DNA of 64,000 nt from contig NZ_CADFEB010000002.1 of the NCBI RefSeq assembly GCF_902833085.1, positions 434,001-498,000 on the forward strand, read 5' to 3'. Shown piece after piece: positions 20,641 to 36,649 of the stretch. Within the stretch, counting starts at the first letter, position 1; every line of letters begins with the position of its first letter. The translations under genes and the position numbers were made by a program. Origin of the DNA: Burkholderia ubonensis (GTDB taxonomy: Bacteria > Pseudomonadota > Gammaproteobacteria > Burkholderiales > Burkholderiaceae). Below the pieces are notes generated by a model. The model did not search any database and was not told where the DNA came from. It saw nothing but the letters and a program-made list of their open reading frames with translations.

Positions 20641-20710
20641 CTAGCTAAGCAGGAGACGAGATTCGTGAGGCGGCGGGTTTCGTCAGAGGGATGACGGCGA
20701 AGCCCGTACG

Positions 20711-20806
20711 CTTCCCTGCGCTGGCATTATCCAGATCAGGTTCAAAGGGTATTTCTCACCCGCAATTGCCGGTTTATTGACCGGGCTCATTGCAGGACCC
20801 CCGCGT
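20711..20806 (-). promoter_or_regulatory. TPP riboswitch (THI element) in the thiC leader
   Basis: Read on the minus strand, the leader starts GCGGGGGTCC, continues through GGGTGAGAAATACCC and ends with CTGATCTGGATAATGCCAG and CGCAGGGAA. These are the conserved P2/J and P4-P5 sequences of the thiamine pyrophosphate riboswitch. It ends about 90 bp before the thiC ATG, consistent with control of translation initiation or of a leader terminator; I did not resolve the expression platform. Confidence 0.95.
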
Positions 20807-21006
20807 TAGCAAGCGCACACGATACACCGGCTTCGCGGCGGTTTCAACCGGGGACAGATCCGTGCCGGATGCACGGCCGCGGCATCGCGCGGCGCGTGGC
20901 GGCGGCACGGCGCGCGCCGAGCACGGGGCGGCGGCCGCGCGGACCCGACGGCGCAGCGCAGCATCGCGCGGCTGCGCGCGTCGCGAAAAAAAATTTTGCG
21001 ACGGCC

Positions 21007-34654: not shown

Positions 34655-35683
34655 TCAGGCTTCGCGTACGCGCAGGTCGGCCGGCGTGATCGTCGCGACC
34701 GTTGCGCCTTCGCGGACCGTGTGCGGCAGGATCCGCGACGTGCGTTCGATGGTCGCGCCGCCGATGCTTTCGACGAGGCGCAGCCACGCATGGCGGCCGA
34801 TGTCGCGGTTCGGCGTCGCGACGCTCGCGAGCGGCGGCGCGAGCAGCTCGCCGATCGCGATGCCGTCGAAGCCGAGCACCGAGATGTCGTCGGGCACCGA
34901 GAAGCCCGCGCGCCTGAGGCCGCGCATCACGACCATCGCGAGCAGATCGTTGCTGCAGAAGAGGGCCGTCGGACGCGTCGCGCGCGCGGTCAGGTGCGCG
35001 AGCACCGCGTCGGGCAGCTCGGGCGCGTTGAAGTCGACTTCGACGGGCGGCAGCGGCGCGACGCCGCTTTCCTCGAGCGCCTGCGCACAGCCGAGATGAC
35101 GCTGCCGCGCGCGGTCCGACGCGGCGAGCGAGCCGGCGAGCATCAGCACGCGGCGATGGCCGCGCGCCGTCAGCATGCGCACGCCGTCGTAGGCGGCGCG
35201 GCGGTTGTCGACCGACACCGACGGGCGGTGCTGCGTGTCGTTGTGCATCAGCACGTAATGCGGGCCGTCACGGTCGAGCATGTCGAGGAGCGGATGCGTG
35301 TCGGCATCGGCGACGGTCAGGATCAGCCCTTCGACGCGCTGCTCGCGCAGCGTTTCGATCGCGTGGCGCTCGCGCGCCTCGTCGTACTCGGTCGTCATCA
35401 GGATCAGCTTGAAGCCGGCCGCGGTTGCGAGCTCGTCGATGCCTTGCAGGCAGTCGGCGAACACCGGGTTCGCGAGCGTCGGCAGCACGACGCCGATCAA
35501 TCGCGTGCGCTCGCCGCGCAACTGGCGGCCGAGCGGGCTCGGGCGGAACTTCAGCGTATCGATGGCCGTGCGGATCGCGGCGAGCGTCGCGGGGCTGACG
35601 GTATGCGGCGCGTTGAGCGCGCGCGACACGGTGGCGATCGAGAAGCCGGCGAGTGCGGCCACATCCTTGATGGTCGGGGGCAT
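34655..35683 (-). CDS. LacI family transcriptional regulator of the ABC importer operon
   Basis: A 342-residue repressor. The N-terminal helix-turn-helix is TIKDVAALAGFSIATVSRAL with the LacI hinge following (TLKFRPSPLGRQLRGERT), then a periplasmic-binding-protein-like ligand domain (LIGVVLPTLANPVFADCLQG, DDISVLGFDGIAIGELL). It lies directly upstream of the transporter genes on the same strand, so the effector is probably the transported compound or a product of it. Two LacI-type operator sequences lie in its own promoter region, suggesting autoregulation and control of the whole operon. Confidence 0.93.
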   Translation of the reverse strand: MPPTIKDVAALAGFSIATVSRALNAPHTVSPATLAAIRTAIDTLKFRPSPLGRQLRGERTRLIGVVLPTLANPVFADCLQGIDELATAAGFKLILMTTEYDEARERHAIETLREQRVEGLILTVADADTHPLLDMLDRDGPHYVLMHNDTQHRPSVSVDNRRAAYDGVRMLTARGHRRVLMLAGSLAASDRARQRHLGCAQALEESGVAPLPPVEVDFNAPELPDAVLAHLTARATRPTALFCSNDLLAMVVMRGLRRAGFSVPDDISVLGFDGIAIGELLAPPLASVATPNRDIGRHAWLRLVESIGGATIERTSRILPHTVREGATVATITPADLRVREA

Positions 35684-35695
35684 GAGGAAAGCACG

Positions 35696-35738
35696 ATGTA
35701 AACGTTTTCGGCGAGGAAATTATCGAGAACGTTTATGA
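35696..35738. promoter_or_regulatory. Pair of LacI-family operators upstream of the regulator gene
   Basis: TAAACGTTTTCG (35699-35710) and CGAGAACGTTTA (35724-35735) are inverted relative to each other with one mismatch, and each contains the AACGTT core common to LacI/PurR-type operators. They lie 16 to 52 bp upstream of the minus-strand LacI gene start. Centre spacing is 25 bp, so two dimers could bind about two and a half turns apart. Confidence 0.65.
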
Positions 35739-35924
35739 CCGTCCGATGACGCACGATTTGGGGGCGAATCGGCGGGCGCGCTTGCGCAATCGTGTGAAGG
35801 ATGCGGCGTGGGGCAGCGCACGTATTGTATCGGCGGATGGTGTTGTTCGCGCTGGAGCGGATGCCCTCGACGGGGTCAAATGCGGACCGCGCGCGCGAGC
35901 AGTGGTAGAATCCCGTCCGCCCTT

Positions 35925-36261
35925 GCCGGGGTGATGAAATTGGTAAACATAGCGGACTTAAAAGATTGAGTGCCCGGCCGGAAACGGCCGGTGCAGAACC
36001 CTTCAAATTCGGTGAAACCCCTGATGCACGGCATCGAGGCAACGCCGAGCCAAGCCTCGCGGCGCACGCGAGGAAGGTGTAGAGACTAGACGGGGGGCGC
36101 CTAAGGCGCACGGGCAACCCAGCGAGCCCGCACGCGATGGCGAAGGCATAGTCCAGCGCACGAACGGCGTCGCCCAGACGAGGCCGGCTTCGAAAGAAGC
36201 AGTGTGACGAAAATCCGCCGCCTTAACTGGCTTGCCGGTTCGAGTCCGGTCCCCGGCACCA
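35925..36261 (+). tRNA. tRNA-Leu(UAA), interrupted by a group I intron
   Basis: Exon 1 is 35925-35959 and exon 2 is 36210-36261, giving an 87-nt tRNA with encoded CCA. The acceptor stem is GCCGGGG/CCCCGGC, the anticodon stem GCGGA/TCCGC, the rejoined loop CTTAAAA with anticodon TAA, the long variable arm contains GCC/GGC, and the T arm is GCCGGTTCGAGTCCGGT. Without removing 250 nt the anticodon arm cannot form. A TAGAAT hexamer about 20 bp upstream is a plausible -10 box. The 3' end also serves as the attachment site of a small decayed island. Confidence 0.96.
35960..36209 (+). ncRNA. Self-splicing group I intron (IC3-like) in the tRNA-Leu anticodon loop
   Basis: The intron is 250 nt and carries no ORF. 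P1 forms between the exon end ACUU and the internal guide GAGU (35968-35971), putting the required U-G wobble at the 5' splice site after U34. P2 is CCGGCCG-GAAA-CGGCCGG. The core has CTTCAAATTCGGTGAAACC (P3/J3-4/P4), GGCAACGCCGAGCCAAG (P5/P6 side), GGTGTAGAGACTAGACGG (P7/P3) and GAAGGCATAGTCCAG (J8/7-P7). The intron ends in G (36209). The core is strikingly similar to the Azoarcus tRNA-Ile intron as I remember it; the insertion point matches cyanobacterial tRNA-Leu(UAA) introns. Confidence 0.94.
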
Positions 36262-36347
36262 ATGGTTTATCCCGCTGTATCTCATGCAGTCTCGGAACCC
36301 CGCTCAGAACCCTCGTCTGACGGGTTTTTTTCGTTTCATGGCGTTTC
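36244..36347 (+). repeat. Left attachment-site repeat (tRNA 3' end plus terminator region)
   Basis: The last 18 bases of the tRNA (GTCCGGTCCCCGGCACCA) and the downstream T-run followed by GTTTCATGGCGTTTC recur in degenerate form and the same order at 37998-38097. The two copies bound the integrase fragment and the M48 gene, as expected for attL/attR left by integration into a tRNA 3' end. Confidence 0.6.
36308..36331 (+). terminator. Terminator after tRNA-Leu
   Basis: A short stem AACCC/GGGTT with an eight- to ten-base loop is followed by a run of seven T (36325-36331), about 50 bp after the tRNA 3' end. Stem pairing is modest, but position and T-run fit. Confidence 0.55.
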
Positions 36348-36357
36348 GTTGGGGCAC

Positions 36358-36649
36358 ATGCATCTCGACCTCGACAAGGGCGAATGGCGGTATCTCGTCA
36401 CGAAAACACGTGTTCCCTGGTGCGCGGGATCGCAAACGGCCAATAAGCGAGGCTGCAATCAACGCGGCGCTGCGGCGCCTAGGCTACGACACCCGTACCG
36501 AGATCACCGGGCATGGATTCCGCGCGATGGCGCGAACGATCCTGCATGAGGAGCTTGAGCAGAAGCCGGAGGTGATCGAGCACCAACTCGCGCACACGGT
36601 TACGGATAACCTTGGCTCGGCCTGCAACCGCACGAAGTTCATCAAGTAG
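36358..36649 (+). pseudogene. Decayed site-specific tyrosine integrase (P4-type), C-terminal fragment
   Basis: Only the C-terminal part of a P4-family integrase remains. One frame starts LDKGEWRYLVTKT; the sequence then lacks about 25 codons and continues in another frame with VFPGARDRKRPISEAAINAA, GYDTRTEITGHGFRAMART and IEHQLAHTVTDNLGSACNRT, which hold the catalytic H-x-x-R and H motifs of the family. A TAG replaces the codon after FIK, where intact relatives continue ERRE. The N-terminal half is missing. It cannot encode active recombinase. Its place right after the tRNA 3' end is the usual one for such integrases. Confidence 0.88.

What the first reader, a model, noticed from the sequence alone, without database searches (positions are those of the whole stretch)
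35925..36261. Group I intron splits tRNA-Leu(UAA) in a beta-proteobacterium
A 250-nt ORF-less group I intron sits after U34 of the anticodon. P1 with the U-G wobble, a GAAA-capped P2, recognisable P3-P8 core and terminal G are all visible. The site is the one used by cyanobacterial and plastid tRNA-Leu(UAA) introns, while the core looks like the Azoarcus tRNA-Ile intron. This makes lateral transfer between tRNA genes, or shared ancestry across phyla, testable. I do not know whether this Burkholderia copy has been described.
Basis: partly seen in the sequence, partly recalled or inferred. Interest (0 to 1): 0.9.

Follow-up and report, generated by a model that had tools for sequence, protein, structure and literature searches.

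The report
Self-splicing intron splits essential leucine tRNA
In this Burkholderia-type bacterium the only gene found for the tRNA that reads the leucine codon UUA is cut in two by a small RNA that should splice itself out; the same arrangement is found across the genus and in many other bacteria, and ordinary tRNA searches can miss it.

Summary
Window 35925-36261 is a tRNA-Leu(UAA) gene split between U34 and A35 by a 250-nt group I intron (35960-36209). ARAGORN in intron mode rebuilds an 87-nt tRNA. Rfam Intron_gpI matches below its cut-off (31.3 bits, E 3.7e-6). A 75-pair group I fold with the P3/P7 pseudoknot is 96.5% paired in 14 relatives, 28 pairs showing changes on both sides.

The split gene is in 65 of 65 genus genomes. 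A pattern for an uninterrupted anticodon arm hits 2 of the 65 (one an additional tRNA-Leu(UAA), one not a tRNA) but 14 of 16 family genomes without the intron. Splicing must therefore work in vivo; it was not tested.

The intron groups with tRNA-Leu introns of other Burkholderiales, then of Alphaproteobacteria, not with Azoarcus-type tRNA-Ile introns; cyanobacterial tRNA-Leu introns form a separate clade. This one family holds at least two intron lineages at the site (p-AU 8e-5). Relatives also sit in tRNA-Leu(CAA), Thr(UGU), Ser(UGA), Ile(CAU) and Arg(CCU).

Verdict: a new, well-supported member of a known kind, with an unexpectedly wide range.

The parts
35925..35959 (+). 5' exon of tRNA-Leu(UAA), ends ...GACTT (U34)
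   Evidence: ARAGORN with introns allowed
35960..36209 (+). group I (IC3-like) intron, 250 nt; intron position n = window 35959+n; the only ORF of 100 aa or more that overlaps it is antisense (35551-36117)
36210..36261 (+). 3' exon of tRNA-Leu(UAA), begins AAAAT (A35), encodes CCA
35956..35971 (+). P1: exon ACUU with intron UUGAGU, U34.G9 wobble at the splice site; U7U8 could also pair with A35A36 of the 3' exon (P10)
   Evidence: sequence; P1 100% paired in 14 sequences; P10 is inference
35974..35991 (+). P2, GAAA tetraloop at 35981-35984
   Evidence: 5 of 7 pairs with changes on both sides, 95.9% paired
35999..36004 (+). P3 5' strand (partner 36092-36097)
   Evidence: 100% paired
36009..36048 (+). 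P4 (36009-36014 with 36043-36048) enclosing P5/P5a 36018-36039
   Evidence: 98.8% and 93.8% paired
36049..36078 (+). P6 and P6a
   Evidence: P6 100%; P6a 94.8% with 5 pairs changed on both sides
36082..36088 (+). P7 5' strand with bulged A; guanosine-binding pair G125-C194 (partner strand 36149-36154)
   Evidence: 100% paired, one pair changed on both sides; assignment of the G site by analogy with known group I introns is recalled
36098..36142 (+). P8 (36098-36101 with 36139-36142) with CCUAAG...GAUGG, near the known GAAA-receptor motif (motif recalled), and an extension
   Evidence: P8 100%, extension 96.2% paired
36157..36206 (+). P9 with P9.1 and a GAAA-capped P9.2 (GAAA 36192-36195)
   Evidence: 98.6%, 78.8% and 95.7% paired
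36209..36209 (+). terminal guanosine (omega G)
   Evidence: sequence

Best explanation
[quoted passage not shown] The pre-tRNA folds so that P1 holds the 5' splice site (U34 opposite G9 of the internal guide). GTP bound at P7 attacks after U34; the freed U34 then attacks after G250, rejoining the anticodon loop CUUAAAA while the intron leaves. Shown: anatomy, covariation, conservation, presence throughout the genus sample, and no intact replacement in nearly all of it. Inferred: that it splices, that GTP is the cofactor, and that splicing is essential because UUA codons have no other reader. The intron entered this tRNA before the genus diversified, from the pool of proteobacterial tRNA-Leu introns, and has been inherited within the genus since.
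For: Precise tRNA halves and intron; RF00028 match; 75-pair model with 28 pairs changed on both sides; catalytic strands nearly invariant (J6/6a-P7-P3' 23 of 24 columns; P8'-J8/7-P7' 16 of 19) while tips vary (P9.1 2 of 22; P6a/L6 3 of 19) in 13 Burkholderiaceae rows; 65 of 65 genus genomes hold it over its full length (own genome included); contiguous-arm pattern in 2 of 65 genus genomes (one an additional tRNA-Leu(UAA) beside another tRNA gene in a genome that also has the split gene, one not a tRNA) but in 14 of 16 family genomes without a match to the intron model, one exact empty site read (L340); own genome's tRNA matches give Leu CAA, CAG, GAG, UAG and no UAA; tree placement.
Against: RF00028 score below its curated cut-off. 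No transcript or splicing data. The assembly is 42 contigs; the tRNAs I could type also lack Tyr, Thr(GGU) and Gly(UCC), and two weak or odd matches (L302, L306) stayed untyped, so a second gene could lie in a gap. The pattern for an intact gene missed 2 of 16 family and 5 of 7 order genomes that lack the intron, so it is not fully sensitive. One genus genome has an additional contiguous tRNA-Leu(UAA). Deep branches rest on about 220 columns and the bootstrap had not settled.
Confidence: 0.94

Rival explanations
1. The intron is a decayed remnant and the split tRNA gene is silent, with UUA read by another tRNA.
For: RF00028 score below cut-off; one genus genome (G062) has an additional contiguous tRNA-Leu(UAA).
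Against: Conservation of the catalytic strands, covariation and presence in 65 of 65 genomes; no contiguous arm found by the pattern in 63 of 65.
Confidence: 0.03
2. The intron came into tRNA-Leu of Burkholderiaceae from an Azoarcus-type tRNA-Ile(CAU) intron of Betaproteobacteria.
For: Same intron family; tRNA-Ile introns are common in Betaproteobacteria (7 of 16 betaproteobacterial pattern hits, one of them with an odd junction). In the core-only tree the deep order is weak (54/87).
Against: At most 64% identity to tRNA-Ile introns, against up to 75% to tRNA-Leu introns of Alphaproteobacteria or unnamed other classes; tRNA-Ile introns fall outside the 142-row clade (100/91) that holds the window; holding Burkholderiaceae tRNA-Leu and tRNA-Ile introns together costs 38 lnL, p-AU 0.021 (groups named after the first tree, L200 left out).
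Confidence: 0.08
3. One ancestral tRNA-Leu(UAA) intron was inherited vertically from the common ancestor of Cyanobacteria and Proteobacteria, with losses.
For: Same site and host tRNA in cyanobacterial, alpha-, beta-, gammaproteobacterial and acidobacterial hits; core-only data do not reject Burkholderiaceae plus cyanobacterial tRNA-Leu introns as one clade (p-AU 0.33).
Against: All tRNA-Leu(UAA) introns as one clade rejected at p-AU 0.024; the family's tRNA-Leu(UAA) introns are not one clade (p-AU 8e-5); patchy presence with empty sites.
Confidence: 0.1

Closest known systems
[quoted passage not shown]
   Same: Same tRNA, same junction gactt|aaaat, small group I intron; cyanobacterial copies came from the same scan and tool. 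Plastid copies were not in my data.
   Different: At most 54% identical over aligned columns (14 rows) and a separate clade; RF00028 scores one cyanobacterial copy at 100.9 bits (L076), the window copy at 31.3.
Azoarcus sp. BH72 tRNA-Ile(CAU) intron and relatives (IC3)
   Same: Betaproteobacterial tRNA intron of similar size with GAAA-capped P2 and P9 (Azoarcus details recalled; its crystal structures are mentioned in PMC3984707, passages).
   Different: Different tRNA and loop position (after the anticodon in the tRNA-Ile rows); tRNA-Ile rows at most 64% identical and in another clade. The Azoarcus copy itself was not in my data.
Group I introns in tRNA-Ile2 of Acidovorax and Burkholderia
   Different: Another tRNA. 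In the window's genome three distinct tRNAs with anticodon CAU are uninterrupted; I did not settle which of them is Ile2.
tRNA-Leu(UAA) intron of a gamma-proteobacterium (Vepritskiy et al. 2002; recalled, nothing seen)
   Same: Same tRNA in a proteobacterium.
   Different: One isolate as recalled; relation to the present clade not tested.

Membership tests
Group I introns | Conserved core P3-P8 with the P3/P7 pseudoknot | tested here: met
   75-pair model, 96.5% paired over 14 rows, P3 and P7 100%
Group I introns | U.G at the 5' splice site in P1 and G at the intron end | tested here: met
   Sequence 35956-35971 and 36209; U.G in 14 of 14 rows
Group I introns | Match to the curated covariance model above its cut-off (an annotation criterion) | tested here: not met
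   31.3 bits against 50. Of 11 loci with core matches scanned, 3 exceed 50, 6 score 26.6-41.9 and 2 (L057, L179) have no match at E 0.01
Group I introns | GTP-dependent self-splicing | not testable with these tools
   needs a bench test
Subgroup IC3 tRNA introns | Small intron, GAAA loops on P2 and P9, receptor-like P8 (criteria recalled) | tested here: met
   GAAA at 35981-35984 and 36192-36195; CCUAAG...GAUGG in P8, not the exact recalled receptor
tRNA-Leu(UAA) introns of Cyanobacteria/plastids | Insertion between U34 and A35 of tRNA-Leu(UAA) | tested here: met
tRNA-Leu(UAA) introns of Cyanobacteria/plastids | Common descent with cyanobacterial copies to the exclusion of other tRNA introns | tested here: inconclusive
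   Full-intron tree separates them; on the core, Burkholderiaceae plus Cyanobacteria is not rejected (p 0.33) while all tRNA-Leu(UAA) as one clade is (p 0.024)

The most novel reading that the evidence does not exclude
Proteobacterial tRNA genes host a large, largely unannotated pool of small IC3 introns that moves between tRNAs whose loop starts CUU or CUC (Leu UAA, Leu CAA, Thr UGU, Ser UGA), because one guide sequence fits them all. In that pool tRNA-Leu(UAA) is the commonest host and probably the source, and the same site has been colonised more than once within one family, in one genus as the sole gene for the UUA-reading tRNA.
Probability: 0.5. Interest if true: 0.65.

Novelty: new member of a known kind. 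Interest (0 to 1): 0.5.

Why it matters
Whether tRNA introns are ancient or travel is an old question, raised by the cyanobacterial tRNA-Leu intron. Here one family offers intron-bearing and intron-free alleles, at least two intron lineages at one site, and several other host tRNAs, so descent, loss and transfer can be separated by data. It also means that a genus probably depends on a ribozyme to decode UUA, and that default annotation can miss tRNA genes of this form.

Tried and rejected
Default ARAGORN and Rfam gathering thresholds miss the gene. Phage collection: no match. A first alignment mixed strands and was discarded (A1). The core-only tree (100 rows, 133 columns) leaves the deep order unresolved and, unlike the full-intron tree, puts tRNA-Ile, tRNA-Ser and beta/gammaproteobacterial tRNA-Arg introns beside Cyanobacteria with weak support (54/87). 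Monophyly of 22 chosen Burkholderiaceae rows is neither shown nor rejected on the core (p 0.48, L200 left out).

Selection and dropped rows: of the many core matches I fetched 100 regions chosen by hand for spread; eight more fetched (besides own-genome stretches and one 2-base slip) were not analysed. Of 29 genus loci L003-L031 only 8 went into the intron set, and L033 was left out as a near copy. Of 216 introns, 215 entered the first tree (L215 dropped) and 184 the second, after removing named long-branch rows and all rows whose host I marked uncertain. Host labels: ARAGORN's junctions were often off by one or two bases, so I used a junction solver (no solution for 16 loci) and set 31 labels by hand. 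Of 120 named hits, 15 had no tRNA call and 12 are only probably Leu(UAA). The Thr(UGU) junction is ambiguous by one base between ARAGORN and my solver.

A terminator-like site after the gene is no more than chance (1 found, 0.9 expected). The 7-kb interval between the gene and a partial copy in G035 (L334) showed no integrase among ORFs of 150 aa or more, read by eye. Copies of the tRNA 3' end near the gene in six genus genomes looked like island attachment repeats at first, but four of the six lie in the opposite orientation, so I claim no islands. Papers: searches (listings) showed no paper that by title or abstract start reports a tRNA-Leu(UAA) intron in Betaproteobacteria; the library holds open-licence papers only, so this is weak evidence of absence.

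Full report
What is there. Window 35925-36261 encodes tRNA-Leu(UAA) in two halves. ARAGORN with introns allowed joins 35925-35959 and 36210-36261 into an 87-nt tRNA with anticodon UAA and a 250-nt intron between U34 and A35. In default mode it reports no tRNA in the window. Rfam's Intron_gpI matches 35950-36105 with 31.3 bits, E 3.7e-6, below its gathering score of 50, so default annotation passes over it. At E 0.001 it is the only Intron_gpI match in the genome.

Structure. I wrote a group I model from the sequence (P1, P2, P3, P4, P5/P5a, P6/P6a, P7, P8 with an extension, P9 with two sub-hairpins). All 75 pairs are standard in the window. Counted on 14 sequences (window, ten genus rows, Mycetohabitans, Candidatus Vallotia and one plasmid copy), 96.5% of cells pair, 28 pairs have changes on both sides (shuffled mean 6.0, 0 of 500 as high), and sliding the partner strand by 1 to 3 columns leaves 35-44%. 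P1, P3, P6, P7 and P8 are 100% paired; P9.1 is the weakest (78.8%). The alignment was made by MAFFT without the model, but the model was drawn on the window row. In the 13 Burkholderiaceae rows the J6/6a-P7-P3' stretch is invariant in 23 of 24 columns and P8'-J8/7-P7' in 16 of 19, while P9.1 is invariant in 2 of 22 and P6a/L6 in 3 of 19. That is what a working ribozyme would show. The only ORF of 100 aa or more that overlaps the intron is antisense (35551-36117).

Is it the only copy? The genome's 58 tRNA matches, fetched and read with ARAGORN, include tRNA-Leu CAA, CAG, GAG and UAG but no contiguous UAA. Tyr, Thr(GGU) and Gly(UCC) are missing as well and two matches stayed untyped (L302, L306), so the list is not complete. 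A degenerate pattern for a contiguous tRNA-Leu(UAA) anticodon arm matches 2 of 65 genus genomes: in G062 it is an additional tRNA-Leu(UAA) beside another tRNA gene, in G033 it is not a tRNA. The same pattern matches 14 of 16 family genomes and 2 of 7 order genomes that lack a match to the intron model, and 0 of 3 intron-bearing controls. In G083 the empty site was read: the 5' exon is identical over 39 bases and the 3' part 94% over 52 (L340). The split gene is therefore almost certainly the working gene.

Distribution. The window sequence matches 65 of 65 genus genomes over its full length at 83-100% identity (own genome included). A covariance model of the core, built from 12 sequences (R1), has matches in 193 of 398 family, 62 of 399 order, 59 of 350 class and 39 of 378 phylum genomes (samples overlap and stricter filters applied). 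By my labels 63 are tRNA-Leu(UAA), 12 probably so, 12 Arg(CCU), 7 Ile(CAU), 3 Thr(UGU), 15 without a tRNA call, the remaining 8 other or uncertain. The 63 come from Alphaproteobacteria (35), Cyanobacteria (15), Betaproteobacteria (4), Gammaproteobacteria (2), Acidobacteriota (2), a Bacteroidia bin (1) and records not placed below Pseudomonadota or not placed at all (4); many are metagenome bins, where misbinning is possible. Within the window's genus one genome has a Thr(UGU) intron (L173) and another an Arg(CCU) intron (L343).

Descent. In a tree of 184 introns over 224 columns the window sits in a 37-row clade of Burkholderiaceae tRNA-Leu introns (100/99), inside a 43-row Burkholderiales clade (87/95), inside a 142-row clade (100/91) that also holds other proteobacterial tRNA-Leu, Leu(CAA), Thr(UGU) and 13 of 18 Arg(CCU) introns. 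Outside it lie the tRNA-Ile and tRNA-Ser introns, the other 5 Arg(CCU), 5 tRNA-Leu introns of other orders of the class, and the cyanobacterial ones. The bootstrap had not settled. Host labels change 7 times, the least possible being 6: introns seldom change tRNA, but they do. The 44 tRNA-Leu(UAA) introns of this one family are not one clade (p-AU 8e-5): rows of genera g3, g12 and g16 lie elsewhere, so the site was filled at least twice. On the core alone (133 columns) all tRNA-Leu(UAA) introns as one clade are rejected at p 0.024 and Burkholderiaceae tRNA-Leu plus tRNA-Ile at p 0.021, but Burkholderiaceae plus Cyanobacteria is not (p 0.33); these groups were named after the first tree. The tree has no outgroup, so direction between tRNAs is inference.

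Mechanism. Standard group I splicing, inferred from anatomy: guide pairing of ACUU with the intron's UUGAGU, guanosine at P7, ligation helped by P10-like pairing of U7U8 with A35A36. The hosts Leu(UAA), Leu(CAA), Thr(UGU) and Ser(UGA) can all give a 5' exon ending in CUU or CUC, which one guide can hold; this is my explanation for movement among them, by reverse splicing or recombination, and is untested.

What is known. tRNA group I introns of Cyanobacteria, plastids, alpha- and betaproteobacteria are reviewed in PMC4033280 and bacterial group I introns in PMC3984707 (passages). [quoted passage not shown] PMC5733544 (passages) covers cyanobacterial tRNA introns. PMC11915505 (passages) states, for tmRNA introns, the boundary rules met here (U before the intron pairing with G in P1, G at the intron end). 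A gamma-proteobacterial tRNA-Leu(UAA) intron (2002) is recalled only. No listing pointed to a betaproteobacterial tRNA-Leu(UAA) intron. I file it as a new member of a known kind. It fits: one contig of family member G156 has the exact length of the Mycetohabitans rhizoxinica record, named Paraburkholderia introns group with genus g20 of the family, and the genus's genomes span 5.5-9.4 Mb; but no tool named the species.

Noticed in passing
L032:2990-3290 (NZ_CP121792.1) and L033: A different split tRNA-Leu with a group I intron sits on resistance plasmids: 1295 of 72,556 plasmid records match, 1273 of them at 99% or more, and 635 of 5426 complete E. coli genomes. In both records whose surroundings I read, an aac(3)-II-type gene lies within 1 kb. 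The 25 E. coli rows shown have no annotated feature there. I read its anticodon as UAA from the sequence; ARAGORN placed the junction differently.
   Followed up: partly
window 36284-36649 (+): Just downstream of the tRNA lies a 121-aa ORF with a weak match to the C-terminal part of phage integrases (PF00589, E 8.6e-5, below cut-off), perhaps a remnant; no second copy of the tRNA 3' end was found in the window with up to 3 mismatches.
   Followed up: partly
G014, G015, G016, G028, G035, G053 (same genus; L334, L335, L338, L339): Copies of the tRNA's 3' end lie 1.2 to 22 kb from the gene, in the same orientation in G035 and G053 and in the opposite one in the other four; in G035 the copy includes the last part of the intron.
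   Followed up: partly
L343:881-1168 (G060) and L173 (G033): Two other genomes of the genus carry group I introns in tRNA-Arg(CCU) and tRNA-Thr(UGU).
   Followed up: partly
window 20695-20812 (-): TPP riboswitch, 63.5 bits.
   Followed up: no
L034, L035 and 11 further plasmid records: In Mycetohabitans (716-857 kb) and Candidatus Vallotia (61-72 kb) the split tRNA-Leu(UAA) lies on a replicon filed as a plasmid, which would make that replicon indispensable if no other copy exists (not checked).
   Followed up: no
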